Of a stretch of 64,000 nt of DNA, positions 6,272-61,743 are shown one piece after another. Below the pieces are notes generated by a model. The model saw only the letters and a program-made list of their open reading frames with translations, was not told the origin of the DNA and did not search any database. Source of the stretch: Fragilariopsis cylindrus CCMP1102. Lineage: Eukaryota; Bacillariophyta; Bacillariophyceae; Bacillariales; Bacillariaceae. Numbering within the stretch: position 1 is the first letter of the stretch; each line of letters opens with the position of its first letter. Both the position numbers and the translations under genes were made by a program. Location of the stretch: positions 62,001 to 126,000 of the forward strand of contig FMBT01000378.1 of NCBI GenBank assembly GCA_900095095.1. Reading direction: 5' to 3'.

Positions 6272-7102
6272 CTTCACAAATATTTTTTTGAACAATCTTC
6301 AAATCAAATCAAAAGAGTAGCCAAAGAAGTTACGATTATTATAGATTCATTCAACATAACTGCAACTATAGAAACGAGAAAAGCAAGTATCAGAGCTTCC
6401 ATCGCCAGCGGTGATGGTGGTGGTATTGATCTGGCCAATTGCGACACTGCCACCAGGGAAATTTTGAAGGATTTTGATTTTGACAACAATGGTTATATTT
6501 CCAAGGAGGAAGTTACTTTGGGAGCAACCCTATACCAGAAAAGTCTCAAGAAGAACAAACAATTCAAGACGATGGTTTCGTGTCTCATTCTTGGATATTT
6601 TGTCTTTTGCTTAACACTTGGAGGACTTACCTATGGTATTGTTAAGGCCAATGAGCAAGTTCGTGTCGATCCTTTGACAGGGATTACCACTACAACCGGT
6701 GGTGGCAATGCTGTCATAATGAAGACGGCACCAGCACTTGTCGTACGTAAGGACACGTCGGTTCACAATGTAACCATTGCAGATCTTAATGCCTTGGAAA
6801 AGATTGTCTTTTTTGATGGTACTATTTCATTCAATGTAATGGGATTTGCTCGAAAAGAGGACGAAACAGTTATTCTTGTACAAGGTGGATCACTTACATT
6901 TAATATGGATGGATTATTTAATCATACTGGTGTTGAACCTGCTCTACTTTTTGATCACATTTCTGATGGTGACCGGAAACTTAGTTCGGAGATGCCGGTA
7001 TTAGTGCAAATGGAGTCGATCTACGGGGGAAGATCGGGTCGGGTGGGACCCAATATCCCCGTGCCCGGTGTAAGTCTCCCACCTATGGGATATAGTCCTT
7101 AA
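6272..7102 (+). CDS. EF-hand, single-span membrane protein (5' end not found)
   Basis: The open frame starts after a stop at 6269 and has no Met before residue ~100, yet it already codes for recognisable protein, so a 5' exon or the true start is missing. Within it are one canonical EF-hand loop (DFDNNGYISKEE, near 6473), a charged linker, a membrane span of about 23 residues (CLILGYFVFCLTLGGLTYGI, near 6580) and an outer domain with VDPLTGITTTTGG, FNVMGFARKEDETVILVQGG and SDGDRKL. The same order, including the ARxxxxTVLxVxGG-like segment and SDGDRKL-like tail, occurs in an unnamed family I know only from diatoms; its members usually carry more N-terminal sequence with further EF-hands. Calcium sensing at a membrane is inferred. 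The last ~25 residues contain a possible donor GTAAGT at 7069, so the 3' end is also not certain. Confidence 0.6.
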   Translation, partial: LHKYFFEQSSNQIKRVAKEVTIIIDSFNITATIETRKASIRASIASGDGGGIDLANCDTATREILKDFDFDNNGYISKEEVTLGATLYQKSLKKNKQFKTMVSCLILGYFVFCLTLGGLTYGIVKANEQVRVDPLTGITTTTGGGNAVIMKTAPALVVRKDTSVHNVTIADLNALEKIVFFDGTISFNVMGFARKEDETVILVQGGSLTFNMDGLFNHTGVEPALLFDHISDGDRKLSSEMPVLVQMESIYGGRSGRVGPNIPVPGVSLPPMGYSP

Positions 7103-7917
7103 TCCCAAAATCCTGATGATAGTTCATACTGCATACACTCAACTCAACTCAACCACCAAACATCATACAGTAATGTACTGTACACCCCGAGACGACCACC
7201 GACCTACTACTGTTCTACTTTAACCATAAATACTATAGTAATGCTTGGGTTTAAAAGTACCAGAAGAGGACTTGTCCGTGGATGATAGTTCATTGGTATC
7301 CCGCACTAACACTGCAGGTTCGTGGAGTACTGTATTGCATTCTTTATTTCCGTTGGTATGAGACTGTCGTTCTTAGTAACTTTATATGTAGCTACGTCCT
7401 TTTTGCATAAAATATTCATATAATATAATATAATATAATGTAATGTTTAAAAAATCACAATCTATTGATAATTTTACTACCTATCATACAGTAGTCGATG
7501 TATATTATCTGTCGTCCTGCGTGCTTAGAAAGAAAGAGAGAGAGAGAGAGAGAGAGAAGCGGTCGATATGAATTTTTACTGAGAAATAAAATTAAATGTA
7601 GTCAAAATCAGTTGTACTGCTGCGTTATTAAAGGCTACGTAATTATTTAATGCAGATATATTGTACAGCCAGTATATCCTTCATTGATATCTTCAAACGT
7701 GTATTTAATTATGCAACAAGAGAACGCGTTAACGTACTGCGCAAGGCGATCCGCCCTCCACTAACATAAGAAATCACAAGTATCTTTGTACATTTTCCAC
7801 AAAGCGTCATCGATTGATCATGATTTGTAAGTTAGTTCTTCGCAATATTTGATTTGATTGTACACAGATCACAATAACCTGCAATACAACAAGATAGTGC
7901 AGTAATTCATAAAAATA
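7103..7917. other. Intergenic, no gene seen
   Basis: Flank of two plus-strand genes. It holds an AG microsatellite at about 7528-7558, a TAATA run near 7420 and several TACTGTA-type motifs (about 7170). No coding signal. Confidence 0.5.
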
Positions 7918-8994
7918 ATGGTACTAATCCGTGCTTTACCACCAGCTGGTGGTGGTGGATGGCTTACTCGTATGAGACATCGTGTCACAGATCTGTCCTC
8001 GTGTCTAGCCTTCTCATTGCCGTACGATGCAGATACGAGTATCACTGTGACGATGGCGGCGTGTTCGGCGGGAGACGGCAGTAATAATAATAATGATAGT
8101 AAAAGTAATAGAATTCGTCTCCCGATCAAACAATTAAGTGGTGGAAAGGTTGGATCAGGTGGTTATTTGTGGGATGGTGGTCGTCGACTGGCATCATACC
8201 TAGAGAAATATGGTGATGGTCATCATCATCATCATCATGATAGTTGTAGAAGTAGTAGTAACAGTAGTAGTAGTATTCCAAGTCGGTCTCTACATGGTCG
8301 ATCATTACTCGAATTGGGAAGTGGAACGGGTAGTGCAGGAATTGTAGCAGCAATGTTAGGTTGTGATGTTACCATCACTGATCAAAAAAGTTTCGTATTC
8401 CCGGGTAGTGGTCCAAATTCACAATTAACCACCCCTGACAAGAAGAACTGGACACTACTCGATTTATGTACTGCCAATGTACAACAAAATACTATCGCTA
8501 TCCAATTGGCACAACAACAACGGCAGCAACAACAACAACAAATACAAATACACAAACATAAACATGAAAAACAACCGCAGACACAGCAACATAATAACAA
8601 CAACAGCACCAGCACCAGCACCAGCGAATCTCAATCATCATCTACAATAGTACCAGTAGTGAATGAATTATTATGGGGAGGTGACGATCAGGAAAAGGCA
8701 TTAAAGCATAATAAATATGACATTATCTGTGGATCTGATATATTACTGTTCACAGACGCACATGATGCATTACTTCGTACGATACGAAATCTATCCACAC
8801 CCACCACAGTTGTTATTATTGAACATACCGATCGAGGGAATAGTGCCCAAACACGTTATCCGACGGATCTGGAAGATTTTTTAAAGGCAGTAATAAAGGA
8901 CGGACTGTGGCAACCAACAATTGTACGAGATCATGGTCGTCATATTACACTTCGTATGGTATATGCAAAAAAAACTAGCTTGAACTTAACTTAA
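7918..8994 (+). CDS. METTL21/Methyltransferase_16-type protein lysine methyltransferase
   Basis: This intronless gene encodes 358 residues with a seven-beta-strand SAM-dependent methyltransferase fold. Motif I is LLELGSGTGSAGIVAAMLG (about residues 130-148), followed by the acidic end of strand 2 (VTITDQ), the DLCTANVQQN segment and a post-motif ICGSDILLF, the place where this family has D-x-x-Y/F. These are hallmarks of the METTL21/FAM86/VCP-KMT group, which trimethylates single lysines on chaperones and translation factors; the target cannot be predicted. The enzyme core is interrupted by low-complexity inserts: a His run (8221-8240), a Ser run and a Gln/His/Asn/Thr stretch (about 8510-8640). 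The start at 7918 gives an N-terminus rich in Gly/Pro that is not conserved; Met at residue 22 or 46 is possible. Confidence 0.85.
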   Translation: MVLIRALPPAGGGGWLTRMRHRVTDLSSCLAFSLPYDADTSITVTMAACSAGDGSNNNNDSKSNRIRLPIKQLSGGKVGSGGYLWDGGRRLASYLEKYGDGHHHHHHDSCRSSSNSSSSIPSRSLHGRSLLELGSGTGSAGIVAAMLGCDVTITDQKSFVFPGSGPNSQLTTPDKKNWTLLDLCTANVQQNTIAIQLAQQQRQQQQQQIQIHKHKHEKQPQTQQHNNNNSTSTSTSESQSSSTIVPVVNELLWGGDDQEKALKHNKYDIICGSDILLFTDAHDALLRTIRNLSTPTTVVIIEHTDRGNSAQTRYPTDLEDFLKAVIKDGLWQPTIVRDHGRHITLRMVYAKKTSLNLT

Positions 8995-10402: not shown

Positions 10403-11089
10403 CGTTTACTATAGTGTAGTATTTTGGGGGAACCTGTTATTATTCGTAATGACTTGCTTGGCTGCCTGGATATGTTCGTGTTGTACAGTACAGTAGAGGT
10501 CTCGGTCGCAAAACTCGCTCTCCTTCAAGAACAAGAAGAACAACAACAACAACAAAAGTTACGTAAAAGTAGAAACATAAAAATTTATGTGTCACCCAAT
10601 GTACTAGTATTGCCCCCCTTCCTAATTTTTAGGTGAGAGAGAACAATAATGAGATGGAAAATAAAACCAATAACCGTTCAAAATAAAAGATCCCGAATTA
10701 ATGGAAATAAATTTCTTGCACCGGCACGCCAATTTTTTTAAAGAGGTGGTATTATTACTGTAGCGCGCGCCTTGCCTTGCCATTCTTCTGTTCAGCAAGT
10801 AATTAGGACCAAACTGTACATTGCTGTACTGTACTGTACTTCGAAGTACAGTAGTAAAGAAATGAAGATACTTTTCGTACTACAGTACAGTAGTAGTATC
10901 TTGTGTACATACAGTATAGTACCTACTAGTACATACGTACCAATGTATTAACATCAACATTTGAACGGAACTTACACTTTTATTAAATAATCAAAAATTC
11001 AAACAAATATAATCTGTAGCACAATAAATAGCAATCTAAAACTAATATCTTACACAGGAGATGGTAGTCTCAACAGTACAAAGAAGAAG
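10403..11089. other. Divergent promoter region rich in TACTGTAC-type palindromes
   Basis: It lies between the membrane protein (-) and the kinase-phosphatase gene (+). From about 10833 to 10930 there is a cluster of TACTGTACTGTAC, TACTTCGAAGTA and TACAGTACAGTAG words. A CAA-type run occurs at about 10540. No gene is seen. Confidence 0.5.
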
Positions 11090-14000
11090 ATGAGACAACG
11101 AAGACAACAACGACGTCATTACCATCGTAATAAAAGATATCATACTGCAATAATATCACAACTACTGGTGGTAGTGGTTGTAACTACTGTTTCTAGTATT
11201 ATTGGTGTAACTGGTGTTATCCTTGTTGTTGATTCTGTAATAATATCTATCTCTGATACCGATCTATTATTAGTTGACGAAAATAATGTGGAAGTTGTTG
11301 TTGATGATGACGACGTTATCGCAGGAGAAGGTGATGATGATCAACAAGACGATGACACCGTTAATGCTCTGATAAAGAATACTATAGAAAGAAAGAAGAA
11401 AACGAGTATTAATAATCAAAATAAATTTCTGTCACTTTTTTGGGGAAGATTACGTCTACAAAAGAACAAAAAGAAACAGGAAGCACTATTAATTGGCAGT
11501 GGCAACGGTGATGAAGATTATACTAAAAGACGTATTAAAGAAACATTAAAGAAATTCTATAAATTAACTGATCCAAGATTTGCTAAAGCAGTACAAGTTT
11601 CATCAATAGTAGGAGTTGCTGATACTGCAATCAATAATGATGAATCAAAACAACAGAATCTTTTATTACTACCGTCATCAAATAGTATTGAAATTACTAA
11701 GGACAATAGTAAGGATGACGATGATGATGATGAAAAACAAGATCCAGAAAATGTAGACGATGATAACGATGACGTCGTTATGTTGCCAGGGACAGTATTA
11801 GAAGTATTTCGAACTCCACTATTACATAATCAACGACGAGATGATGATCATTCCATTTTTCCGATGACAGATAATACTAATATTGAATGTGATTCAAGGT
11901 ATATGCTATGTGAATCAATACATCTGGAACTTGGTACTGCACCAAATCATTATATGGATTTTGCATATACATCTGTTCTACAAAATCAAAAATCTGCTGA
12001 AACAAAAAAATCTGCATCTTCTACTGCTGTCGAAGTCGAACTCATTGAAGAAGAAAAAGAAAAAGAAGAGGATGACGATCAATCTCAATCATCAACTTGT
12101 AAAGATATTGTATCGACGACGTCGATGACCAGGAATAATAATAACATTGAGATGATGAACGACGATGTGAAAAGAAATAACTATAATGATAATAAAACAG
12201 AAATGTCATTTTTTTCTGCTTGGTGGAATTGGTGGTTACCATTTACAAATAGTGACTGGTGGAAAGCGAAAGGTTCTACACAGTCTGATTATGATATGAA
12301 TACAGGTGCATTTGCTGGTGGTAGTAATGGTGAAGTATGGAGAGGACATCGTGTTTGTTCGTCGTCATCAAAGAAGGAGTGTGATGATCAAACACAATTA
12401 GTCTTAAAAAGATTACGAGTAGAACGTGGATATCTTTTATTAGAGGCAGGATTAAGAGAAGTGTATTTTGGTAAATTAATACAAACTCAACTGGATGAAA
12501 ATCAACAAAACAATATGTATACAGTATACGTGGATCATTTTTTTCGTGAAGTTCCGAAACAACGAATTATGAAAAAAGCATTTGGTGTTGGTGCTGGTCT
12601 ACAACAACAACAACAACAAGGAAATGATTTAGAATTATGGATCGTCTATGAAGATGCTGGTCCATCATTACGGTCCTACCTTTATACTCCAACCGTGACT
12701 GATGGTGGATTTATTATGTACCAACATAGTAAGTTATGGACCCAACTTCGTACTTTTACAAATGAAGAAGAACAAGCGTCGTACCATGCTTCGTCATCAT
12801 CAGCATCAGCATCAGCATTACAGGTACAGAATCTTGATAATCACGGTTATGATGTTCCGTCAGAACCGTTGTTTACTTCTTCTTCTAATAATAGTAAAAA
12901 GAAGAAGAAAAGGAAGAAGAAAAAGAGGACCGATAATAATGAGAGGATACTTCATATAGGGCGATTATTCATGCAAAATACACTACGTGAAGTATTATCT
13001 GCAGCTGCAGAATTGCATAAACGTGGTATAGTCCATCGTGATATAAAACCATCAAATGTAATGTGTAAATCAAATGTACCAATAGATGATTATATTCATT
13101 CATATGAAGAATTTGAATTTGATGACGATAACGACGACGACGACGACAAAGATGATGATTCATCGTCATTACCAAACATGCATTGTCGACTTGGTGATTT
13201 CAGTTCTGGTTGGGACCAGTATACGAATGAACATTTATATACAAAAGGACCGACACCTGGTGAACAAACTAATGAGTATGCACCACCAGAATCATTTGTT
13301 GGACCGAATTGGGTACCCTTCTATAAAGATAAACCACAATCGTATGATTCATGGTCCATTGGTGTTCTTGCATTAGAATTACTTCTTGGTACACCAAATG
13401 TATTTTCTGTTGATCAAAGAACGAATGCATTATTAACCTACAAAATGAAACGTGCTAATGCATCTGAAAATGAAATATCGAATGCATTATATCTGGCAGC
13501 ATTATCAAATTTCTGTATTTATATTCCATCCAACGATACGTCGAATAAGCCACAAAGTTGGCCACTCCGACACGGTGATCCATTACACAAGGTGAGTTGT
13601 GTGTATTGTATATCTGACATTAGTAGCATATATTAGAGTAATAGATAGAAATATAGTCTGACCGTGCAACAGAATAGAATCCCCCCTAGAAATTTCCTTA
13701 AACAATTTTTCATTTTTCTTCTGTTTCCAATTATGTTCTTATTCAAAAAACGAAGACGTCTATGGTGAAGGAATCGTGTACGCTTCAAGATTTCCATCGT
13801 GCTTTAAGAGCGCGAGATCCACTGGGGATCGGCTTTGATTCTTCTACCGATCTATTATTACACCTTATATGGCAACTTCTTGCTTTTGATCCTGAGGAAA
13901 GAATGACAGCAGAAGAAGCTCTTCAGCATCCATATTTTATCAGTCCCGATGGGACGTTGGATTCTCTCAATGAAATTCCAGGTTTTCACAACGCACTTGA

Positions 14001-15724
14001 ATCACAAATGCTTGATCCAAGAATTGATTTCAATGTCGTTGATGACATCAAAGATTTTGTATGTCCTAAGTGTGGCCGAGTGTTTCACGACTGGGAATCC
14101 TGCCATAGACATAGTAACATTCGAAAACACTCAAAGTTTTGTACATACAATCACACATATCTCCCATCATGTATCAATACTCATATGATGCTACCCGAGC
14201 ACCCAACATCTGGATATTGTGATCTTCAAGGGCGGAGGCCTACCATAGAGGACTTCCATTCCATTCATTTAAAGCATGATCATCAGTTTTATGGCATGTT
14301 TGATGGTCATAGTGAGTTTGGTTTTCTTTTCGCCGAAATGAACACGTTCCTTTTACAAATGTCAAAAGATTGTAAAAGTATTGCTCACCGACTTGTTCCC
14401 GTATTTTACTTACTTCTAATCTATCTATTTTTGCAGCTGGAAATCTTGCGTCAAAATTTGCTGCGTCGGAATTATACGGAGAGCTTATGAGACGTCTCCC
14501 TAACTTGGAAAATATGTTGACTACGAGTAAATCGGAAGGCGAAGGAGTTATTGGCGACGAAAAGTATTCTTGGAAAGAAGATATTCGTATCAATATAACG
14601 CAGGCATTTGAATACGTTCATGATCAGTTTCTAGATAGAATTACAACGATGACTTCTCCCATTGTTGAGGTCGGTACAGCACCGAATATGGACCAAAGTG
14701 GTACGACCGCAACGGCTATACTGGTGACAGACAATATGATAATAGCAGCTACGTTAGGTGATTCGAGAGCAATCATATCGTCATCACCATCGACAGCGAA
14801 AAGTAAAGAAAATTCAGATTCATCAAGAAGTAGTAGCAGTCATAGCAGTAAGAATCCCTGGAAGGATTTTCCATCGGTATCTGCAGTTCAATTTTCGATC
14901 GACCATGTTGCTTCGCATCCTACCGAACGTGATTTAGTGATAGAACGAGGAGGTTTTGTGAGCGCGTCCGGGGGTATCCCCAGAGTTAATGGTATCGTAC
15001 GTTTAAGTCGAAGAAAATATCGTGTCACGTCTAATATAAAGTCATGCATATGAATCTCACATCGTTACATTGTTGCTTCTACTGTTGTATTTCAAATACA
15101 ATGCAATACACAGCTTGCAGTTACCCGTAGCATAGGTGATGCTGATCTGGCTCCTGTTTTATCACGCGAACCTCACGTGCTTGTGTTAGATCGTTCCGAG
15201 ATCCGAGAATTGTGTGGTAGTCTCGGTAGATCATCAAATAACAGCAGCGAACAAGATAATAATGGACATACAATTCCATGCTTCGTGATTCTTGGTACGT
15301 ATTAATATTCATTCTATCTTTTTGGGTGGAAGTATTGACCATATCGCTGAAATGATCTTCTTCTCACTGATTGAATGATTGCTGCTGTGCACATATCATT
15401 TTCCCTTTAAAAATCATTATCGTTAATACAGCGAGCGATGGTCTTTGGGATGTTATGAGTAACCAGGAAGCAGTTGATATGGTAGTTGATATAATTTTAC
15501 GAGAAAATATGGAAATGTATGACGGTATTGGCGCAAGAGAAAGAACTATGTTTCCCCCCTCCTCCTACGATAATCATAATAATAAGGATGATATTGATAT
15601 CTACTATAACGATCATGAAGCTGCTGATGGGCCCTTTCAAGAAGCCGCTGAACGTCTTGCAGTTGAGGCGTACGTTCGTGGCAGTACCGATAATATTGGA
15701 GTTTGTGTAGTGGCTGTTGATTGA
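11090..15724 (+). CDS. Protein kinase - C2H2 zinc finger - PP2C phosphatase fusion protein
   Basis: Five exons (11090-13591, 13756-14311, 14437-14996, 15114-15294, 15432-15724) join in frame to 1363 residues. Residues ~20-50 are a strongly hydrophobic span after a basic start, so a signal anchor is likely. A long Asp/Asn-rich region precedes the kinase domain (~409-892): glycine loop GGSNGEVW, LVLKRL with the ATP lysine, GIVHRDIKPSNVM (~650), GDFSSG in place of DFG (~701), APPES, and DSWSIGVLALELLLG. At ~935-957 is C-x2-C-x12-H-x5-H (CPKCGRVFHDW...). The PP2C domain (~986-1363) is complete: RRPTIED, YGMFDGHTGN, SGTTATAIL, GDSRAII, RVNGILAVTRSIGDAD, ASDGLWDVM and STDNIGV, all metal-binding aspartates kept. 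Each intron interrupts a motif that the splice restores, which argues strongly for one gene. A self-contained kinase/phosphatase switch at a membrane is inferred. Donors are GTGAGT twice and GTACGT twice. Confidence 0.88.
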
Positions 15725-19066: not shown

Positions 19067-20365
19067 TTAATCTCTAAATCTACATACTACTAATATACCA
19101 ATAATCAAAAATATGATATTTACTATTAACGAGTCTTCAGTGTCGTTGTCTCCACTACCACTACCACTACCACTACCACTTCCACCTCCACTTCCACCAC
19201 CTGTATCTAATATTTGAATAATGACTGAAAAGAATAGATATATTGTCATCATTGCAAATAATAAACCGACCATACAATACGTTGTTAGTATACCCATAGA
19301 TGTATCCATAAAGAAATAAATATATTGTGGTCCAACACTTGTCTTTTTTGTATCTTTTGAGTTAGTTTTATTATTATACCCAAAATGATAATAGATACCT
19401 AGTAACCATGTCAATATCATATATAGACATCCCACCAATATTGGGATGGTGATATGATAGAGACAGACTGGTATACCACCGAATACTGTCACTTCCAATA
19501 AACTAAAAATGGAATTCCAATTATGTTGTAATTGATTTCGATATCCCGCCAAGTTATGTTTTCTTGAATTATTAGGTGAATTTGAATTTGAATTTGATTG
19601 TATTTGTTGGGAACGTAATGCTGCTGGCCATATCACGTACTTCACAACAGAGGATGTTAATACAGCATAGGGACCAGTTAATTCCCACAGTATGAATGTT
19701 ATACGTAACAGCCATGAGTTATTTTCTTGTAATATATAATTAAGTATTAGACCGTTATCCTCAGAAACATGATAATTCACATAAATCAAACATAGTAGAC
19801 CACGTAATACAAATCCAATACCTAATATGAACCATGATATAGAGGTAAATGGACATAATGTACCAAAACCTTGTAGACGTAATTTAACGTGTTGTAATTT
19901 CGTATACTTTGGAAGATAATTTGGCATTAATTCCCATCCATCTTTTAATAAACAAAGATGCAAAGTTAAACTTAATGCAATTCCACCAATCAATAATCGT
20001 AGATATCCTAATCCTTTCATAGATAAATACAATGGAAATTTGGTCTTTGTTATGATTTGTAATGTGGCATAGTCATCTAATGATTGTGTCGTTGGTAAAT
20101 TTCCTATTAATAAAATTAATATTATTAATAATAATATTATGGTATGCCATGGTGGTATACCGGATTGTATTTTATTATTCGTTGATGTTGACGTTGGCGG
20201 TATTGTTACTACTACCGGTACTGATGCTGCTACTGATGCTCCTGCTACTGCTTTTGATACAGCTTTGGCAGTATTAATTCTCATTTTATTTTCTTCATTA
20301 TCTTTTTCTTCATCTTTGGTACTGTTATTACTTCTATTTCTTAGTATCGTCGTCATCATCATCAT
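19067..20365 (-). CDS. Multi-pass membrane protein, unknown function
   Basis: One uninterrupted frame of 432 residues. After a hydrophilic N-terminus there are about eight predicted spans, among them TIILLLIILILLIGNLP, LLIGGIALSLTLHLCLL, ISWFILGIGFVLRGLLCLIY, ITIPILVGCLYMILTWLLGI, MVGLLFAMMTIYLFFSVI and a C-terminal VNIIFLIIGILVVC. Conserved-looking hydrophilic signatures are KLQHVKLRLQGFGTLCPFTS, WELTGPYAVLTSSVVKYVIWP and GYRNQLQHNWN. The SSVVKYVIWPAALR segment reminds me of hypothetical diatom proteins, but no transporter or enzyme motif is present. A Gly-Ser repeat (about 19145-19195) lies just before the last span. The start is the first of four consecutive Met codons. Confidence 0.72.
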   Translation of the reverse strand: MMMMTTILRNRSNNSTKDEEKDNEENKMRINTAKAVSKAVAGASVAASVPVVVTIPPTSTSTNNKIQSGIPPWHTIILLLIILILLIGNLPTTQSLDDYATLQIITKTKFPLYLSMKGLGYLRLLIGGIALSLTLHLCLLKDGWELMPNYLPKYTKLQHVKLRLQGFGTLCPFTSISWFILGIGFVLRGLLCLIYVNYHVSEDNGLILNYILQENNSWLLRITFILWELTGPYAVLTSSVVKYVIWPAALRSQQIQSNSNSNSPNNSRKHNLAGYRNQLQHNWNSIFSLLEVTVFGGIPVCLYHITIPILVGCLYMILTWLLGIYYHFGYNNKTNSKDTKKTSVGPQYIYFFMDTSMGILTTYCMVGLLFAMMTIYLFFSVIIQILDTGGGSGGGSGSGSGSGSGDNDTEDSLIVNIIFLIIGILVVCRFRD

Positions 20366-21052
20366 AGATTATTAGGATGATGATGATGATTATGATTTGC
20401 TTTGTTGCTGGCTATATTATTATATTATATTATAAAATGATACTTCAGTATAATAATAGCAAAGAATGTGTGTGTTATTGTCGGCACTCTGCTGATGTGA
20501 GTGAATAACGTCACAATGTTTGAACTTACTACGTACAGTACTACGTAGTTTGGAAATTATATTCACATAAAAAACATAAATTTAATTATGCGCATTTTAC
20601 AGACCGACATGTAAAATGCGCATACCAGTATCTTGTTTCAGTGAGTAGATTTCTTGCTGAGGTGCGCGCCAATCGTATCCAACGGTAACTGTTAACTATA
20701 TTCAAATATTAATATTAACGCGATAAATATCTTCGACTCATTCGACTGACTCGACTCATTCATTCACTCTCTATTATGCACACTCGAAAGATCTTATTAT
20801 GACAATCATCAGATACAGACAGTAGATAAAACGTTAACGTCACCACAGCAACAGTACATTACTCTACTTTATTAGTACTAACCACGATATAAATACAGGC
20901 ATACAGTACACTGTCGTTTGTACAAACACGACAGTTCTAGCTACTAAACAGGTAAACATCATCATGTTAGAGTACTGTAGCAATTATTCAAAGAAAAGAG
21001 GTAGAAATCAAATCAAATCAAATCAAGTATCATATAGCGAAATCAATCAATC
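20366..21052. other. Divergent promoter region with two inverted repeats
   Basis: Spacer between the membrane protein (-) and the histidine phosphatase homologue (+). It contains a perfect short inverted repeat ACTACGTA/TACGTAGT at 20528-20535 and 20542-20549 and the longer hairpin at 20587-20624. No gene is seen. Confidence 0.5.
20587..20624. promoter_or_regulatory. Perfect 15-bp inverted repeat, 8-bp loop
   Basis: TATGCGCATTTTACA at 20587-20601 and its exact reverse complement at 20610-20624 flank the loop GACCGACA. The position, about 220 bp upstream of one divergent gene and 430 bp from the other, suits a protein-binding palindrome or a cruciform; function is inferred. Confidence 0.75.
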
Positions 21053-22639
21053 ATGACGTCGAATAAAAACAAAAGCAGTAAAAATAAAAGAATCAAAGCA
21101 AATACTAAAATACAATGTATATGGTTGGTTCGTTATGGTCTTACCGAACATGCATTAATTGAAGGTGAGTAAGCAGTGCAGGCAATGCAATGCAATGCAA
21201 TGCAATGCAATGCAATGCAATGCATCCGATCCGTTCGTTCGTTTGTTCGTTCGGTCGTTTGTTCGTTCGTTCGTTCGTTCGTTCGTTCGTTTGTTCGTTA
21301 TCGTTATCGTTATCGTTATCGTTATCGTTTATCGTTATCGTTATCGTTTATCGTTATCGAAGATAAAAAGTCCGGTACTAGTAACTCTAAAATTATTACA
21401 GATATCAAAAACAAAACAAAACAAAACAGAACAGAACAAAAAATCTTCCATCGATCAACTTTCAGTCATTTTCTTGTTGGTTTTTTTCTTTCATTTGCTC
21501 GTTCTAATAATACTCATCGGGAATGGGGGGGGGGGGGGGGGGTCATGATTGCATGATTGCATGAATGAATAGATAAATTAATTACTCATGCCTTATATTA
21601 TTGTCTGTCTTCTATCGTTTATTATTTTTTTTATTGACTATCATAAAAATAAAAAGATGTTGGTCCATATGATAGTGATATTGATCCAAAAGAAGGGATT
21701 GAACATGCACAATGTATTGCGAAAAGGATTGCGAATGGTCATCAGTGTCAGGTCATCGTTCACGTTGACGACAATAATAATAATAATGATGTTAATAGTA
21801 ATAATGAAATAACATCTGAAACAGTAACGGAAGATTCAACTATACCAAAAGTTGTGTATGCGGATCCATTTATGAGAACTACTCATACAGGACATATTAT
21901 TGCACAGGAATTATGTAATAATAATAATAAAAATGATATTAAATTACGATCCGAAGATGGATTATGGGAATGGTTAATACCATCCTTACTTGTGGTTAAA
22001 TCAACAGGTATAAAAACAGAACCACAATCTAGGAATGATTTAAAAGATAAATTTAATTCAATTGATATAAATTATCAAAGTATACAGTCTTATAAAGACC
22101 AAATGATGTTTACATTTCCTGAATCGGAACAACAATTATTGAATCGTTGTGAAATAACATTATCAAAATTAATCCAAACAACTGAAAGTGAAAATGAAAG
22201 TGAAAATGAAAATGAAGCTGAAGATACAAATGATACAAATAAGAATAATTATGAAAGTATTTGTATTGTAAGTCATGCACCATGTTTACAAGCAATGGCC
22301 TATTATTTAGATACTATTGATTCGACTTCGACATCATCATCACCAATAAAGGAATCATCAACAATTGTAAAACCATGGCCATTAGGTGGTATCACAATGT
22401 TTTCAAGAATTATTACTACTACTACTACTACTACTACTTCTATTATTGCAGAAGAACATGACGATATCGATGACGAAGATGACGATGACGATGAAAGTAA
22501 AGTTAAAGACAAAGATGTAATATGTAGTAAATGGAAATGTGAATTTTATGGTTGTACCAATCATATGATCGATGACTATAAAAATGGTATCAAAGAATGG
22601 TCATTACCATGCTTTGATACTACTACTCCTAGTAGCTAG
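21053..22639 (+). CDS. Histidine phosphatase (phosphoglycerate mutase-like) family protein with RYG motif
   Basis: Exon 1 is 21053-21164, exon 2 is 21657-22639; donor GTGAGTAA, acceptor AAG, and the split codon restores EDVGPYDSDIDP. The product has 364 residues. The fold is recognisable from WLVRYGLTE at the N-terminus, GIEHAQCIAKRI, VVYADPFMRTTHTGHIIAQEL (the place of SPxxRAxxTA), GLWEWLIPSLLV and CIVSHAPCLQAMAYYL with the second active-site His. In active members the first motif is RHG, whose His is the phosphate acceptor; here the codon is TAT, giving Tyr. The protein may be inactive or a binding protein, unless the base is a sequence error. Poly-Asn, Glu/Asn and Asp runs interrupt exon 2. 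The intron is made almost entirely of microsatellites. Confidence 0.83.
21181..21542. repeat. Run of five different microsatellites inside one intron
   Basis: Within the 492-nt intron lie, in order, a TGCAA/ATGCA pentamer run (21181-21222), a TTCG tetramer run (about 21233-21300), an ATCGTT hexamer run (about 21297-21358), an AAAAC/AACAG run (about 21410-21440) and a G18 tract at 21525-21542. Confidence 0.9.
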
Positions 22640-23949: not shown

Positions 23950-24925
23950 GTTTAGTTTTTTTGTTTAATGTTTGTTTTAATAAATTTTGAATTTGATATT
24001 GTGAGAAGATACTGTCAAAGTTCCATTGTACTTGTTAGGACCGAAAACATAGGTGGTGGATATGATCCCCACAGTACGACATTATGATAGTCAACATGTC
24101 ATTCTTACCGGTCCAATACATCATTGTCATCATGCCAAATCACATCACTATTGATATTGTTCTCGGCACGTGAGTACAGCAAAGAACCTCACTGGTTACG
24201 GATATGCCGTTCTATATATGTCAATTCGTGTTGTCTTCTTCGGCACGATGAAAAAAATGCAGTGAGAAGAACAAAGAACCTCACTGCATGGTTACGGATG
24301 CGTTGTTTTATATTATATCAATTCGTATTGTCTTATTCCGCATGAAGAACAAGTAATGTTCTAAGGAGTGAGAAAAACAAAGAACATCTCGCTGGTTACG
24401 TTAATCCGTGTTGTCTCATTCGGTGTTGTTGCTCGGTTTGGTTCTCAACTTTCGCTCTCAGTGGGATCGGATCTCATACCACTTTCATGCTCTCTGTTTG
24501 TTATCTCGCGATCAAAAAATTAACTTAGGGCGTTTTCTCCCTCTTTATGAATATTTCCCTCCCCCGAACTTTTCGTTCGTGCGAATGTTTCTCGCACGAT
24601 CAATCATTCGTGCAAACAGAGAGAGCATGAAAGTGGTATGAGATCCGATCCCACTGCATGAGAAGGAAAAGTTGAGAAACAAACCGAGCAACTATCGAAT
24701 GAGACAAACACGGATTACCGTAACCAGCGAGATGTTCTGTGTTCTTCTCACTCCTTATGAACATATGTTCTTCATGCGGAATAAGACAACACATCCGTAA
24801 CCAGTGAGGTTCTTTGTTCTTCTCACTCGTTATGAAAATTATTTTCTTCATCGAGTTTATCTTCTCACAAAATTAAAAAGATACAACAAACATTAAAACA
24901 ACAATATCAAAACAAAAACAGAAAG
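23950..24925. repeat. Large imperfect inverted repeat between two divergent secreted-protein genes
   Basis: The core arms are 24460-24500 and 24613-24655, which are exact reverse complements apart from one 2-nt difference, around a ~112-nt loop. Outward, the arms stay similar: CGGTTTG and ATGAGACAA, GTAACCAGCGAGATGTTCT, CATGCGGAATAAGACAA and GTAACCAGTGAGGTTCTTTG on the right arm all have reverse complements on the left. The left arm has three direct sub-repeats of about 95 bp that begin with CAAAGAAC (near 24180, 24270, 24378); the right arm has two. The outer ends, CTTCTCACA followed by an A-rich leader with AAACATTAAA, are also mirrored just upstream of each start codon. It may be a foldback element or an inverted duplication of a promoter. 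Confidence 0.8.
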
Positions 24926-24934
24926 AAATTAATA

Positions 24935-26446
24935 ATGAAATTCATCATTCCCAACCTCACGTCTATACTTTTCATTGCAAGTTTTGCTTCGATTCGAGCT
25001 CAAGATTGCACCACCGGTCCAGATGGATCAGCAACCATTTGGAATTCGGATGCGGATATTGCGGCCTCTGCGGCCCATAGGGGGGATAACAATATGTACG
25101 GAATGATTGTTCGACATCGTTTCGACGGTTTGGTGCCCTGTGAAGAAACTGCATTCCAAGACTGTATGTCGTGGGATGAGTTGATCAAAGATCACGATGT
25201 CTGTAACGGTCCCGATGGCAAGAGTGGTGATTGTGGTGTCGCAGCTAGCTACTGGCATGAAAATATCAAAACTCCTAACCAAGCATATCCTAATGGTGGA
25301 TCAGCAGATCCTGATAATCTAAACTATCCAACTGTCGTGTATGCTGCTTGGACTTCGTGGGACATGAATCCCAATGGTCGGTTACAAGGATATGCATTTT
25401 ATCCAACAGACTCCAATTCCAATGATAAGCGAGATTGGCTTAACGAAATGGGTCTTCCCGGTCAGGGGTGTCATGGCGAACAAAACTTTCAGTGCACGAA
25501 TGATGGTTGCTTATCACAAGAGGGTTATGATTCTCAATGGTGCAAATGTAATTATGATGAATTTTCAGCTGAAAATTTTGGTGAGATTCTAGCTGCCTCA
25601 TTCGTTGATAATGACGACGGATTCTGGAGCTGTATTGGTGAGGATTGTAACAACGGTTATGGACCAGTCAGTGACATGAACAACCTTCAATATATTTATC
25701 AGGGACACGATTATTCGTCTTGCTGGGTTGATGAAGGGGACTTGCGTAAAAAGGGAGATATGAACATGATTATTGATGCACAGAACTCTATCTATTGGAA
25801 TAGTGATGATTGGTGGAATGGGATGTCATTTGCTGGTACACCTAGCCAATATTGGGGTTGGAATGAAGTCTCGTTCGACAAAAAACTTGATGACCCATGC
25901 GATGGAGATCAGTGTAATTTGGATTCACTTATCATCGTGCTGCCTATTGATCACTCGTCTATTTGCGACGTGGATAAAGAATCGGCCAAAGCAATTGACA
26001 CTCAGATGATGGATTACTGGAAGGATGGATTTGGTACGCTCCCAGTTATTGTTGCACGAAATATGGACTCCAATGGCGATGGAGTTAGTTACGATATGGA
26101 ATTCTTCACTCAAAACTTTATTTTCGAGAGCGGTAACTGTATTATCTACTCTTTCGACGATAATAACGCCTACTATTATCCTAGTGATGATCCAAGTGGA
26201 TTGTGCGGAATTCCTGAGCCTAAGTGCAAGCATCATTGTAGCAAGGGAAAGCCATGTGGAAATTCTTGTATTCCAGAAAATACATCTTGTGTTAAAAAGA
26301 CCCGTGGAAGTGCTTGCTGGGTAAAAGAAAAGTGTACCAAATTCTGTGACGCAGGACAGGCATGTGGTAATTCTTGTATCTCCAAAAATGATACTTGTAG
26401 CAAAACACCCGATGAAGGGTTTGCCTGCAACAAGGAAGATTACTAG
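24935..26446 (+). CDS. Secreted protein with C-terminal CGNSC repeats, unknown function
   Basis: A single frame of 503 residues with a clean signal peptide (IIPNLTSILFIASFASIRAQ). The main body (~25-420) is rich in Asp, Asn, Trp and Cys: WNSDADIAASAAHRG, RHRFDGLVPC, YAAWTSWDMNPNGRLQGYAF, GYDSQWCKCNYDEF, VIVARNMDSNGDGVSYDMEFF. The last contains DSNGDGVS, an EF-hand-like calcium loop. The tail has two copies of a Cys module: HCSKGKPCGNSCIPENTSC and FCDAGQACGNSCISKNDTC, each spaced C-x6-C-x3-C. Similar CGNxCI modules occur at the ends of many bacterial and algal secreted proteins; their role is unknown to me. No hydrolase motif is certain. It is paired head to head with the other Cys-rich secreted gene. 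Confidence 0.78.
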   Translation: MKFIIPNLTSILFIASFASIRAQDCTTGPDGSATIWNSDADIAASAAHRGDNNMYGMIVRHRFDGLVPCEETAFQDCMSWDELIKDHDVCNGPDGKSGDCGVAASYWHENIKTPNQAYPNGGSADPDNLNYPTVVYAAWTSWDMNPNGRLQGYAFYPTDSNSNDKRDWLNEMGLPGQGCHGEQNFQCTNDGCLSQEGYDSQWCKCNYDEFSAENFGEILAASFVDNDDGFWSCIGEDCNNGYGPVSDMNNLQYIYQGHDYSSCWVDEGDLRKKGDMNMIIDAQNSIYWNSDDWWNGMSFAGTPSQYWGWNEVSFDKKLDDPCDGDQCNLDSLIIVLPIDHSSICDVDKESAKAIDTQMMDYWKDGFGTLPVIVARNMDSNGDGVSYDMEFFTQNFIFESGNCIIYSFDDNNAYYYPSDDPSGLCGIPEPKCKHHCSKGKPCGNSCIPENTSCVKKTRGSACWVKEKCTKFCDAGQACGNSCISKNDTCSKTPDEGFACNKEDY

Positions 26447-38637: not shown

Positions 38638-40218
38638 CTAGTATATCTTATTTAATGATTGTTGCTTTCTTGGCATTTTCGGCATTGATAAAGATGAATC
38701 TTGATGTGGTGGATCACGGCTTCCTCCTTTTCTAAGTTCTCTGCTTCTCATTTTTGGTTTTGATGATGACGATGATATATGTTCACTTTGTGTATCCGAT
38801 GTCATCTTGTTAATGTTGATGTTGATGTTATCATCAACACCATCATCATTGGTAAGACATTGTTCCAATGCATCTTTGATAATCGAACGGCGCGTTCTTG
38901 AATCAGAACCAGAAACACGTTTCTGTGTTCCTTTTGGTAGATACGATCTGGACAGAGAAGGAGGTAATGACGCTTCTCTTGGTACTTTCGGTACTGATAA
39001 AGACGAACCTTGATGTGATGGATCACGGCTTCTTGATCGGGTACGGTTTTTATTCTTATTTTTATCTTTGTTACTGGCATGGCTTTTACATCGGGGAGGG
39101 TTTCTTGTTTTACTTTGTTCATTAGCTGCTGTTGGTGCCGATGCAACCGATTGATTACCAGACGAACGAGAATTTTTCTTTCCTCCTATTCTACGATCTC
39201 TGCTTCTCAATTTTGGTTTTGATGATGATGATATATTCTCACTTTGTGTATCCAATGCCGTTGTATTGATGTTGTTGTCATCATCATCAATGGAAAGGAA
39301 TTCTCCTAGTGCATTTTTGACATTAGAAGGCCGGTTTTTCGTATCAGAGTCATGTGTATCCAATGTGGAAAGTAATTCTGCCAATGCATCTTTGACACTT
39401 GAACGACGTTGTTTTGAATCAGAACCATAAACACGTTTCTGTGTTTCCGTTGATTGATACGATTTAGACGAAGATGGTGACTTTTTGGCGTTCATTGTTA
39501 TCCTTGTAGATCTTTTGCTAGCCGAAGGCGACCTTGATTGACTTCGTTGATGACGTCGACTTACTTGTAGCGCCGCATCCTGTGACCTCGAATGACTTCG
39601 TTGATGTCGACTTACGTGTAGCGATTGACTTCGTTGATGTCGACTTACTTGTAGCGCCGCATCCTGATCTTGTCCTTCTGGTTGTCGTCTTCTGCTACGT
39701 CGTTTTTGATTGGTTATAGTTGGTGCATCAGACACAGAATGACTTCGTCTACTTATGCTGTCAGAGCAACTGTCATGATGATTACTGCTGCTTCGGCTGC
39801 GTCTTTTCTTGATAATTGTTCTTCCTCGTCCCTTACTACTATGACGACGACTACTACTAGGGACCTTACTTTCCTTTGTATTATCATTGTCTTTGTAGTA
39901 ACTTAAGGGCACCGTTCCGTCTTCTCCGTTCTCATAATCTTTTTTATTACAATCAGTATCATCGGATTTTTCCCCTCTTACTACCTTCTTCTTTTTCTTC
40001 TGCTTTTTCCTATTACTACTATTATTACTATCAGTATTATCTTTCTTTCCTTCATCATCTGATTCCGAGTTCAAAGATTCTCCACCCGCCCAAGGATCCC
40101 AGTCAATAGCACCGCCCGCCCAAGGATCCCAGTCTAGAACATCAGTTCCAAATACATTCATACGGTTACTACGGTCATTGTTGCTGATGAAGGAGCTGTG
40201 GCCAATGGCAGCATTCAT
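38638..40218 (-). CDS. RS-rich, internally repeated protein, probably nuclear
   Basis: A single frame of 526 residues, nearly all low complexity: Ser/Arg/Lys-rich with many RS and SR dipeptides, basic clusters (KKQKKKKKVVRG, RTIIKKRRSRSSS) and no folded domain that I recognise. Three sorts of duplication are visible: DWDPWAGG twice near residues 29-46; an SRHQRSQS-type unit four times (about 39535-39660); and a longer module with KRVYGSDS, K-DALAELLS, DTQSENISSSSKPKLRSRDR, present about twice (near 39200-39450 and 38740-38940). RS-rich proteins commonly act in splicing or mRNA metabolism in the nucleus; here that is inference from composition alone. Confidence 0.6.
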   Translation of the reverse strand: MNAAIGHSSFISNNDRSNRMNVFGTDVLDWDPWAGGAIDWDPWAGGESLNSESDDEGKKDNTDSNNSSNRKKQKKKKKVVRGEKSDDTDCNKKDYENGEDGTVPLSYYKDNDNTKESKVPSSSRRHSSKGRGRTIIKKRRSRSSSNHHDSCSDSISRRSHSVSDAPTITNQKRRSRRRQPEGQDQDAALQVSRHQRSQSLHVSRHQRSHSRSQDAALQVSRRHQRSQSRSPSASKRSTRITMNAKKSPSSSKSYQSTETQKRVYGSDSKQRRSSVKDALAELLSTLDTHDSDTKNRPSNVKNALGEFLSIDDDDNNINTTALDTQSENISSSSKPKLRSRDRRIGGKKNSRSSGNQSVASAPTAANEQSKTRNPPRCKSHASNKDKNKNKNRTRSRSRDPSHQGSSLSVPKVPREASLPPSLSRSYLPKGTQKRVSGSDSRTRRSIIKDALEQCLTNDDGVDDNINININKMTSDTQSEHISSSSSKPKMRSRELRKGGSRDPPHQDSSLSMPKMPRKQQSLNKIY

Positions 40219-41504
40219 GCTATCTACTATATTTATTATGATGTGATTTGTTCTGGGAACTCTTACTACGGTAAAAGCTATTTTTTATGAAGAGTGTAAT
40301 GACAAGAGCAACAAAGAAGCAGGTTATTTGACGATGTTGTCATCAATTTACTTATTATTGATTATTATATATCGTCACTAATACCAGTACCAAAAGTATA
40401 GTTGGAGCAAATATATCCATTCGATTCTGCCCAAGCAACTAATGATTGATTCAGCCACTTTTCTTCATGGACAAATCGGCAATGTTGTACTAGTAGTACA
40501 GTATGACTAATTTTGTGACGTTAACATATATGCGTTTTATCTAATATTATTTTTTATAGAAGTACCCAGAAAATGGTTGACCCAGGAGCATTAAAAGTAG
40601 ATTAAACAAAAGAAGATGGCATGCATTCCCTCTCTTTCTCTGTCTTTCTCTCTCTTCTTCTTACGTATGACTAAGTTTGTGACGTTTATAACATAATAAT
40701 ATAAGGTAGTAAGGCATATATCAATTAGGACACAGTCACTTTGTAATAGTCCGTATGCGCGAATTGCAAAACTTCAACTTCAAGGATACACGACGCGAAT
40801 ATTGACTTTTATGTGCACTTATTGTTCATCAACTTCTAATATGCCTAAAACTTAATAGAACTGATATTTTTAATTCTTTTTTAATTCAACGGTAATGTGG
40901 CTTATCTTTTGTACAACTTTATATAGGGTCCTCGATTACAGTACTATATATATATATTATGAAATATATAAGAGATAGCGCGATGGTGGACTGGAGCGTC
41001 CGCGAAAGCGACGAGTCTCCATGCGCGATTAAAATTCAAATCTTGCGAGAATGGGGGACACGGGAAATTTTGCAACGCGACCAAATCACGATTTCCTTCT
41101 TTCAGATTCCCCCCAGCCTCCTCCTCGCGCGGCTGGAATAAAAAGAAGTTAACGACGACGTGGTGTTAAAAAAAAAATCTCACAAAACGTCGCAAAAGAA
41201 CATAAAATAATAACAATGACGATCGATGTTATCGAAAGAAGGAAGGAAAGAATAGAATAAAGGAAAGCACTACTTGTTGTCTCTTTCGGCGGCGGCAATA
41301 GTGACAAGTCATACTACACGTAGTGGTAATAATGGAATTAGTAGTAGAAGTGCTACTAATAAAGTCAGGATCTAACATAAACCCACAAATTTGATTTTGA
41401 TTTTGATTTGTATATCTTATGTGATTTTATCATTACGATACACACCATAATAATTTAGAAAACAGATTTGTACCGTAGGAAGATTTTATTATTTCTAATT
41501 TTTA
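40219..41504. other. Intergenic, no supported gene
   Basis: Upstream of the RS protein (-) and downstream of the NTF2-like gene (-). A GC-richer 180-bp block at 40960-41140 gives a 60-codon frame that resembles no family. A TCTC run lies near 40630-40660. Confidence 0.45.
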
Positions 41505-44245: not shown

Positions 44246-45526
44246 CTACATAGCAGTATTAGCATTTTGTCTTCTTCGTCGTTCGTCCTCTACTTCGTGA
44301 TGGATACGATCGATTGCACATGCAATACCAATGAACAGTAGACAATCCTGACCTGCTGATACAGTCACATTATACGTATCGGTCCATTTAAACATCTTTT
44401 TATCGACTGTCGCAAATGCTCCTACTGCTGTATTCCCTAGAGTAAATTGACTTGGCCATCTACCTTGACATTGTACTGGTGGATGGTGCGACATTGGTCC
44501 TGACAGTTCGATAACATATTGGTCGGTAACATTCCAAGACCAGCATCGCGTGACACGGCAAACGGGGATTTGTACACCTGGTCGATGAGGATCATATCGG
44601 TATAATTCGTATACGTAATTCCTCCACGAGAATCGTTCTTGCATTGCCAATAATGGTTCTCCTGCTATATTCGTGATCATAAAGTGACAATTTTTGAAAG
44701 TAGCTCCCATTGAAAAAAATCCACCATTGGTACGAATCATTTTAAACCACGGTAAGTTACCAGAACCTCTGATAATAGCATCACCGTAACTCCATCCACG
44801 GTTCTGCAACGTAAACTTTTGTTGATAATTAAATGCGATTGTTGAAATCTGTCCAGGAGCTAAGGGAGTTCCGTTCCTAATGATTTGGTTAAAAGTTTGA
44901 GCAAGACAACAGTCCGCCATTTGTTGGGCAATGATTGCCTGTTCCTTTGCCCTTAGTCGGGCAATGATTGCATGTCTCTTTGCTTCCTTTGAAGTTGCGA
45001 TTTCCATAAAGACTTCCACACATCGTTCTGTCCATCTTGGCTGGAGAAGTAACGCATTATGAAGAGCATTCTTACCGATTGCATTCGTACGTAATATGGC
45101 ATTGATATACTCTGCAATGCTGTTGGCTCTCTTTCCTGCATTTGACTCGTTAGTGATGTAGTTCTTCAATCCAAAATAAGAACCTGATGGAAATTTGGGG
45201 CTGCTGTTGTCTTTCTTCATGAATTGTCGCATTCGATCTCTAATTTCACCAAATGAAGACCATTGTGTTATGGCAACAATTGAACCATCAACATAGATCC
45301 TAAATGCATATTCTCGTTGTGGTTTGCCTCTCTTCTTTGTAATTTTTTCTCGTATACGGCCAGCCTCATCATTATCACCACTGATTCCCGGAACTACCAA
45401 AATCGTTGATTGATAGGTTGCCTTTTCTATCATTGGTTGGATTATACTTGCTGTAGCAGTAGCAGATGCAACAGGAAATGCTTGTGCTATTGGGATTGAT
45501 GTTGTGTTGGGGGTGATAGTTGCCAT
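44246..45526 (-). CDS. PX-like domain fused to LURP-one-related (LOR) domain
   Basis: A single frame of 426 residues. Residues ~70-165 look like a PX phosphoinositide-binding domain: YAFRIYVDGSIVAITQWSSF (RYSDF position), EIRDRMRQFM, FPSGSYFGLKNY, then RANSIAEYINAIL and LHNALLL. A helical Ala/Arg/Gln-rich linker follows (~185-210). The C-terminal ~200 residues are a LOR/tubby-C-like beta barrel: FTLQNRGWSYGDAIIRGSG, FFSMGATFKNCHFMITNIAG, PLLAMQERFSWRNYVYELYR, DQYVIELSG, VQCQGRW, and the closing NVTVSAGQDCLLFIGIACAID, a known LOR/scramblase-like ending. A peripheral membrane protein that binds phosphoinositide lipids is inferred. The PX part is weaker than the LOR part. Confidence 0.75.
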   Translation of the reverse strand: MATITPNTTSIPIAQAFPVASATATASIIQPMIEKATYQSTILVVPGISGDNDEAGRIREKITKKRGKPQREYAFRIYVDGSIVAITQWSSFGEIRDRMRQFMKKDNSSPKFPSGSYFGLKNYITNESNAGKRANSIAEYINAILRTNAIGKNALHNALLLQPRWTERCVEVFMEIATSKEAKRHAIIARLRAKEQAIIAQQMADCCLAQTFNQIIRNGTPLAPGQISTIAFNYQQKFTLQNRGWSYGDAIIRGSGNLPWFKMIRTNGGFFSMGATFKNCHFMITNIAGEPLLAMQERFSWRNYVYELYRYDPHRPGVQIPVCRVTRCWSWNVTDQYVIELSGPMSHHPPVQCQGRWPSQFTLGNTAVGAFATVDKKMFKWTDTYNVTVSAGQDCLLFIGIACAIDRIHHEVEDERRRRQNANTAM

Positions 45527-60898: not shown

Positions 60899-61743
60899 AT
60901 CAACTATAATTTTATGAAAGTATAAAGAAAAGGAACGTGAAATGAATGAATTTCGATTTTGTGCGTATTGATTACTGTAAAAGGAGAGAAAAGAAAAAAA
61001 ACCTTCTTTTGTAAAACTAGCAGTGATTGCTATTAGTTTTCAGAAATCAATTAGATTGATTACAGGTTTTCAGTGGTATATGAATTAACATCACATCAGA
61101 ACGTTTCTTTTTTACATTTTCGGTCCCTTCAACGGATTTGTGTTTCAGTGTATTGCTGTTTCTCAAATCGTGTGCGAATCGCCAAAAAAATTGAAATAAA
61201 ATCATTCGTGATTGGATTGCTTTCAGTCGTGCTTTTAGTCGTGCTTCCATTGTTCTTAGATCATGATGTCGCTCGTCACACGTGTCCTTTACCCACTCAT
61301 CGCTCGGTCCGCAAGAACAACCACATCTTCCAGATTTCATCAGTAAGATCTCTCTTTTCTTAGCTACTACGACACATCCTTGATCCAGCACACACCGTAA
61401 CAACAAGAACATGGAAGAACAGCAAGGAGCACTGGACACTTAAATGAATAGTTACTATACCGATATTGTGCCTATCAAGACAAACTCAGCAATTTCTCCG
61501 CTGACATCAAAGACTCGACTCATCTATGGTATGCAGTTGTTTACTAACAGTAGCTGATGATCGATCGAGTTTGAATAAATGAATCAATCAATCAATCAAT
61601 CAACATCAATCCATGACAGCAACATAACTAATCAGATTATCTTAACTTGATTGTATTCGGTCTATCCATATATCACATAAACCTCTCATAAAATAATAAA
61701 CTCAGCAACAACGAACAACGACCGACAACAACGAACAAACAAG
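60899..61743. other. Divergent promoter region, no certain gene
   Basis: Between the armadillo-like gene (-) and the retropepsin-like gene (+). A 130-codon minus frame (61047-61439) has a hydrophobic start but no family resemblance. An AATC run lies at 61580-61605. The ~55 bases before 61744 are CAACAA-rich leader. Confidence 0.45.

What the first reader, a model, noticed from the sequence alone, without database searches (positions are those of the whole stretch)
11090..15724. Protein kinase, C2H2 zinc finger and complete PP2C phosphatase in one polypeptide
Opposing activities are fused with a zinc finger between them and a hydrophobic span at the N-terminus. All four introns interrupt motifs that the splice restores (for example FDGH-TGNLASKF and RVNGI-LAVTRSIGDAD), so this is not two neighbouring genes. 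Kinase-PP2C fusions exist in plants with other linkers; the zinc-finger version is new to me.
Basis: partly seen in the sequence, partly recalled or inferred. Interest (0 to 1): 0.78.

Follow-up and report, generated by a model that had tools for sequence, protein, structure and literature searches.

The report
Diatom kinase, zinc finger, phosphatase fusion
A diatom gene appears to join a protein kinase and the opposing phosphatase in one probably membrane-anchored protein with a small zinc-finger-like linker; kinase-phosphatase fusions are known in plants and water moulds, but this linker version did not turn up in the limited searches made here.

Summary
The gene model holds. Five exons (11090-15724, +) joined by four GT-AG introns give a stop-free 1363-residue protein: an N-terminal hydrophobic span, an acidic spacer, a protein-kinase domain (Pfam 1.1e-18), a C2H2-spaced finger and a PP2C domain (Pfam 3.9e-29) with six of six core residues. 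The best evidence for one gene is exon 2: the end of the kinase, the finger and the start of PP2C lie in one open 185-codon exon. Caveats: the kinase N-lobe is recognised only by eye; the finger is below Pfam cut-offs; no cDNA.

Kinase-PP2C fusion is a known kind: VTC3 in plants and red algae (PMC11066809), several oomycete proteins (PMC3019232, PMC10925823). This genome, a diatom by its silicon transporters, carries a second, only weakly similar kinase-PP2C protein in one intronless frame. Unusual here are the finger linker and the charge pattern, which predicts a type II anchor with both enzymes luminal. Verdict: new variant of a known kind; most likely a tethered writer-eraser of phosphorylation. 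No eukaryote proteomes were held, so conservation is untested.

The parts
11090..13591 (+). Exon 1: N-terminus, hydrophobic span, acidic spacer, kinase up to the C-lobe (residues 1-834)
11147..11230 (+). Hydrophobic span, residues about 20-47; net K/R minus D/E is +8 in residues 1-18 and -16 in residues 53-90
   Evidence: 19-residue Kyte-Doolittle windows up to 2.44
12296..13938 (+). Protein-kinase-like domain (residues about 403-895, interrupted by intron 1): HRDIKPSN 649-656, GDFSSG 702-707, APPE; N-lobe by eye only
   Evidence: Pfam Pkinase 628-895, E 1.1e-18
13592..13755 (+). Intron 1, 164 nt, GTGAGT donor; alternative in-frame acceptor 15 nt downstream
13756..14311 (+). Exon 2: end of kinase C-lobe, finger and first PP2C motifs in one open exon (residues 835-1019)
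14062..14130 (+). C2H2-type finger candidate, residues 937-959 (C-x2-C-x12-H-x5-H)
14218..15721 (+). PP2C domain, residues 989-1363 (spread over exons 2-5)
14312..14436 (+). Intron 2, 125 nt, inside FDGH/TGN
14437..14996 (+). Exon 3
14997..15113 (+). Intron 3, 117 nt, inside RVNGI/LAVTRSIGD
15114..15294 (+). Exon 4
15295..15431 (+). Intron 4, 137 nt, inside VIL/ASDGLWD
15432..15724 (+). Exon 5 with the last PP2C motif (STDN) and the stop

Best explanation
One gene encodes one membrane-anchored protein that carries both a Ser/Thr protein kinase and a PP2C phosphatase, joined by a single C2H2-type finger. Shown: the continuous reading frame, the exon that physically links the three parts, and the presence of the PP2C core residues and of the kinase residues HRD-Asp, Asn and DFS-Asp. 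Inferred: both domains are active; the hydrophobic span anchors the protein; the two enzymes work on the same local targets or on the kinase itself, so that the PP2C limits or resets phosphorylation written by the kinase; the finger acts as a rigid spacer or a protein-contact or zinc-sensing element rather than as a DNA-binding domain, because it is single and the protein looks membrane-anchored.
For: Stop-free 1363-aa splice product. Exon 2 links kinase end, finger and PP2C start without a stop. Pfam Pkinase 68 bits (cut-off 31.7) and PP2C 102.5 bits (cut-off 20.3). PDB phmmer: the finger-PP2C part matches plant PP2C 50 at 5e-18; the kinase part matches CaMK1 at 3.5e-9. PP2C residues R995/D1000, D1017/G1018, D1269, D1353 present (positions; motif set from passages of PMC10925823). 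A second kinase-PP2C protein exists in one intronless 733-aa frame of the same genome. Precedents: VTC3 (passages) and five P. sojae fusions, for which a figure legend reports single transcripts by read mapping (PMC10925823 passages).
Against: No transcript or protein evidence. The kinase N-lobe (Gly loop read as AGGSNGEV, Lys440) has no significant match by Pfam or in a profile comparison with five other proteins of this genome (some of these lack an N-lobe in the frame used, so the test is weak). The first Gly of the loop would be Ala. The finger is below Pfam cut-offs and its fold model is of low confidence (mean pLDDT 40.3). No orthologue could be examined: scans for close relatives found none in viral and prokaryote collections, and no eukaryote collection is held, so selection on the linked form is untested.
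Confidence: 0.55

Rival explanations
1. The kinase domain is a pseudokinase or scaffold: it binds nucleotide or substrate and presents it to an active PP2C, so the protein is only a phosphatase.
For: N-lobe not recognised by models; low-complexity inserts in the domain. The P. infestans kinome paper suggests substrate binding by the kinase-like domain for two proteins with inactive kinase, phosphatase and cNMP domains (PMC3019232 passage).
Against: Asp651, Asn656, Asp703, a candidate Lys440 and APPE are kept, unlike those two oomycete proteins, described as inactive.
Confidence: 0.25
2. Two products: intron 1 retention or an internal promoter yields a truncated kinase and a separate finger-PP2C protein beginning at a methionine early in exon 2.
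For: Intron 1 retention gives a stop at residue 849 and exon 2 has Met as its third codon; intron 1 has two in-frame acceptors, the first after an A-rich tract.
Against: GTGAGT donor; the last part of the kinase C-lobe (LLAFDPEERMTAEEALQHPYF) is in exon 2, so a kinase product ending in intron 1 would be incomplete and the second product would carry a useless kinase tail.
Confidence: 0.12
3. The finger is not a C2H2 zinc finger but a chance Cys/His cluster, or another metal site, in a linker.
For: Below all Pfam cut-offs, with zinc-ribbon and other models scoring about as well; no second copy in the genome by protein search (the only other hit, E 0.21, lies in a CATACA-type repeat).
Against: The C2H2 spacing appears in 0.21% of whole-protein shuffles and 0.95% of linker shuffles, 0.03% and 0.05% with the aromatic; residues 99-122 of exon 2 are the only run of the model with pLDDT of 50 or more and show strand-strand-helix.
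Confidence: 0.25

Closest known systems
VTC3 (At2g40860) of Arabidopsis, dual kinase/PP2C protein of ascorbate control
   Same: N-terminal Ser/Thr kinase and C-terminal PP2C in one protein (PMC11066809 and PMC12675267, passages)
   Different: [quoted passage not shown] the window protein has a long acidic N-terminal spacer, a hydrophobic span and a finger between the domains. Sequence relation not tested (no VTC3 sequence available here).
Oomycete kinase-PP2C proteins (four in P. infestans, five in P. sojae)
   Same: Kinase and PP2C in one protein in another stramenopile lineage (PMC3019232, PMC10925823, passages)
   Different: In P. sojae the cyclic-nucleotide (CAP) domain occurs together with the kinase in such proteins; two of the P. 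infestans proteins have cNMP domains and inactive kinases. The window protein has no cNMP hit and keeps catalytic residues.
Second kinase-PP2C protein of this genome (L043, G000:C99)
   Same: Kinase then PP2C in one frame
   Different: No Cys/His finger; about 180 residues between the domains; kinase 26% identical over 141 aa (E 1e-5) and PP2C 24.7% over 231 aligned columns; its PP2C does not group with the window's in a small, weakly supported tree.
Rv1364c of Mycobacterium tuberculosis
   Same: PP2C-like phosphatase and kinase domains on one polypeptide (review PMC9138534, passages)
   Different: Bacterial sigma-factor regulator with PAS and STAS domains and the opposite order; a works-like comparison only.
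tpSTK1, ER/Golgi silaffin kinase of Thalassiosira pseudonana
   Same: Diatom kinase entering the secretory route by an N-terminal signal peptide (PMC4557024 passage)
   Different: Works-like comparison only; the passage mentions no PP2C; its sequence was not compared.

Membership tests
PP2C / PPM phosphatase | Pfam PP2C above curated cut-off | tested here: met
   102.5 bits, cut-off 20.3
PP2C / PPM phosphatase | Six core residues of RxxxxD, DGHGG, DGLWD, DN | tested here: met
   R995, D1000, D1017, G1018, D1269, D1353; DGHGG reads DGHTG
PP2C / PPM phosphatase | Metal-dependent phosphatase activity | not testable with these tools
   needs enzyme assay
Eukaryotic protein kinase | Pfam Pkinase above curated cut-off | tested here: met
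   68 bits, cut-off 31.7, profile positions 100-263 of 263 only
Eukaryotic protein kinase | Catalytic Asp (HRD), Asn, metal-binding Asp (DFG) | tested here: met
   D651, N656, D703 (DFS variant)
Eukaryotic protein kinase | N-lobe with Gly loop and VAIK Lys | tested here: inconclusive
   AGGSNGEV and VLK by eye; no Pfam or profile support
C2H2 zinc finger | C-x2,4-C-x12-H-x3,5-H spacing | tested here: met
   937-959
C2H2 zinc finger | Pfam model above cut-off | tested here: not met
   zf-C2H2_4 15.9 bits (cut-off 27), zf-C2H2 13.6 (25.2)
C2H2 zinc finger | strand-strand-helix fold | tested here: inconclusive
   seen in a low-confidence single-sequence model
VTC3 | Kinase N-terminal, PP2C C-terminal | tested here: met
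VTC3 | Orthology by sequence; chloroplast location | not testable with these tools
   no VTC3 sequence held; location needs experiment
Oomycete/plant phosphatase-cNMP-kinase | Cyclic-nucleotide-binding domain | tested here: not met
   seven families listed up to E 10, none cNMP
Type II membrane protein | Single hydrophobic span with positive N-flank | tested here: met
   +8 before, -16 after; the topology itself was not tested

The most novel reading that the evidence does not exclude
A lumen-facing writer-eraser: the positive N-flank and acidic C-flank place the kinase, finger and PP2C inside the secretory route (ER, Golgi, silica deposition vesicle) or outside the cell, where one tethered protein both adds and removes phosphates on secreted proteins such as silaffins, with the finger reading zinc or redox state in that compartment. 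No luminal kinase-phosphatase fusion is known to me (recall).
Probability: 0.13. Interest if true: 0.75.

Novelty: new variant of a known kind. Interest (0 to 1): 0.42.

Why it matters
Kinase-PP2C fusions have been described in plants, red algae and oomycetes, but their purpose is unexplained; a 2024 review says that the function of VTC3 is unknown (PMC11066809 passage). Two different fusions in one diatom genome suggest that diatoms reuse this pairing, and a membrane-anchored version with a distinct linker gives a further testable system. If it faces the lumen, it would bear on how phosphate on silica-forming proteins is set; one review says that the known silaffin kinase accounts for only about 25% of silaffin kinase activity (PMC3820600 passage).

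Tried and rejected
Relatives: the search for related loci with the 529-residue exon 2-5 protein found no match in viral contigs and none confirmed among 10 pattern matches in prokaryote genomes. Both scans use exact 8-residue patterns and reach close relatives only; no collection of eukaryote proteomes is held, so an orthologue search was not possible. Own-genome searches: the finger linker has no other copy found (the second hit, E 0.21, lies in a CATACA-type repeat), and no second allele or paralogue of the gene was seen (these tools give lower bounds). RuBisCO was sought to place the organism and not found; silicon transporters, 27 matches with best E 1.1e-226, point to a diatom (that PF03842 is diatom-typical is recalled). 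A plastid-targeting signal was considered: no ASAF-like motif after the span (by eye, recalled rule), so a VTC3-like chloroplast location is not favoured. Attempts to support the N-lobe gave nothing (Pfam; MAFFT with frames from seven of eight kinase loci tried; profile comparison). A tree of 12 PP2C segments, the window's and 11 others of this genome, two of them near-identical, has weak support and some rows are incomplete because introns were not removed; it is used only to say that the window PP2C does not group with the other fusion. The single-sequence model of exon 2 is too poor for a fold search, so none was run. A second fold job (exon 1 kinase part) was never accepted because the queue was full.

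How far the fusion count reaches: one search scanned 8 PP2C-bearing open frames and found a kinase in the same frame in 1 of 8 (L043, chosen because searches already showed both domains there); exons outside each frame were not seen. One search lists 39 PP2C matches, so other places were not scanned for kinases. The kinase list scored 118 of 358 candidates and contains neither the C99 kinase nor the window's own, so it cannot exclude further fusions.

Literature listings are capped: one search listed 13 of 13 papers, 20 of 45, 25 of 98, 14 of 14, 25 of 46, 11 of 11, 10 of 10, 12 of 493. Other passages read: PMC9138534, PMC2705460 (no PP2C or protein kinase mention), PMC4396506 (VTC3 described as dual kinase/PP2C).

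Full report
What is there. Joining 11090-13591, 13756-14311, 14437-14996, 15114-15294 and 15432-15724 gives 4092 nt and 1363 residues with no internal stop. The four introns are GT-AG, 117-164 nt, and each would bring a stop if retained. Pfam finds Pkinase (E 1.1e-18, residues 628-895) and PP2C (E 3.9e-29, residues 989-1289), both above curated cut-offs; the finger scores below its cut-off.

Why one gene. Many in-frame GT-AG choices exist around each intron (27, 37, 53, 49), so an open frame alone proves little. The stronger facts are that the proposed donors are GTGAGT, GTGAGT, GTACGT and GTACGT, that three junctions restore PP2C motifs, and above all that exon 2, 185 codons without a stop, holds the end of the kinase C-lobe (LLAFDPEERMTAEEALQHPYF), the finger and the first PP2C motifs (GRRPTIEDF, FYGMFDGH). 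Intron 1 lies inside the kinase; its acceptor is uncertain by 15 nt but either choice keeps the frame.

PP2C part. The six core residues used in the P. sojae survey are present, six of six (positions; motif set from PMC10925823 passages). The best PDB hits are plant PP2Cs (5e-18). Aligned with 11 other PP2C segments of this genome it shows the usual motifs and an extra insert of about 40 residues before the last motif.

Kinase part. HRDIKPSN, GDFSSG, YAPPES and the C-lobe are clear, and the best PDB hits are CaMK-type kinases at 3.5e-9. The N-lobe is not clear: the Pfam match starts at position 100 of 263, the N-lobe alone has no kinase hit up to E 10, and a profile from five proteins of this genome aligns only from the region before the catalytic loop on (some of those frames lack an N-lobe). 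I read AGGSNGEVW as the glycine loop and VLK440 as the ATP-binding lysine by eye. The domain also carries two low-complexity inserts. Activity is therefore likely but not secure.

Finger. Residues 937-959 have C-x2-C-x12-H-x5-H spacing with the usual aromatic; C950 and C963 are also near. Such spacing arises in 0.21% of 20,000 shuffles of the protein (0.03% with the aromatic) and in 0.95% (0.05%) of 20,000 shuffles of the 93-residue linker. In a single-sequence AlphaFold model of exon 2 (mean pLDDT 40.3) residues 99-122 of 185, that is 933-956 of the protein, are the only run at pLDDT 50 or more, with two short strands and a helix in finger order. Pfam cut-offs are not met, and zinc-ribbon models score about as well. 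I take it as a probable, divergent, single finger.

Membrane. Residues 20-47 are strongly hydrophobic; the first 18 residues carry net +8 and residues 53-90 net -16. By the positive-inside rule (established knowledge) this predicts a type II signal anchor, N-terminus in the cytosol and both enzymes on the luminal or outer side. This is inference. The first Met in the open frame is the one at 11090, but an upstream exon cannot be excluded.

Surroundings and relatives. The genome (67.9 Mb, 818 contigs) has 27 silicon transporter matches, best E 1.1e-226, which points to a diatom. No allele or paralogue of the gene was found. The same genome has another kinase-PP2C protein: a 733-residue intronless frame on C99, with the same matches on C394, presumably the other haplotype, with Pkinase 1.5e-22 and PP2C 1.9e-20. 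It is only weakly similar and has no such finger. Of 8 PP2C-bearing frames scanned it was the only one with a kinase, and it had been picked for that reason; the remaining PP2C places were not scanned.

Known kinds. [quoted passage not shown] The P. infestans kinome table lists four kinases with PP2C (PMC3019232, passages) and P. sojae has five such proteins, for which a figure legend reports single transcripts by read mapping (PMC10925823, passages). The term 'zinc finger' does not occur in the main text of PMC3019232 or PMC10925823; the P. infestans table does list zinc-binding FYVE and ZF-B domains on kinases, without saying that they share a protein with PP2C. The listings, several of them capped, show no paper on a kinase-C2H2-PP2C protein; they cover open-licence papers only.

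How it probably works. The best-supported reading is a tethered writer-eraser: kinase and PP2C held near each other by the finger linker and kept at a membrane, acting on the same local targets, with PP2C able to reset the kinase. The single gene is well supported (I put about 0.85 on it); dual activity and the resetting step are inferred. The pseudokinase-scaffold reading remains the main rival.

Verdict. A real and well-read feature, but a new variant of a known kind. Interest 0.42; it would rise if orthologues conserve the finger ligands or if the protein proves to face the lumen.

Noticed in passing
L043 (G000:C99:127800-131000), frame 381-2579; same matches on C394: A second kinase-PP2C fusion in this diatom genome, 733-residue intronless frame, about 180 residues between the domains without a Pfam hit (reads to me like a PDZ-type segment, by eye). 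Candidate for a VTC3-like protein.
   Followed up: partly
window 7906-8991 (+): Lysine methyltransferase family frame (Methyltransf_16, E 1.9e-19) upstream of the fusion gene.
   Followed up: no
window 47145-48476 and 50043-52538 (-): Likely pieces of a DEAH-type RNA helicase (OB_NTP_bind 6.8e-13, HA2_C 7.6e-11 in the first; a DEAD hit below cut-off in the second) on the minus strand.
   Followed up: no
window 6272-7099 (+): Frame with a weak EF-hand match below cut-off (E 1.9e-4).
   Followed up: no
window 24836-26443 (+), 38641-40284 (-), 59087-61039 (-), 19070-20368 (-), 21653-22636 (+), 44249-45535 (-): Six long open frames with no Pfam match at E 0.01, of ten frames scanned.
   Followed up: no
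window 10480-10960: Repeated tacagtac/gtactgtac tracts in the intergenic stretch upstream of the gene (seen).
   Followed up: no
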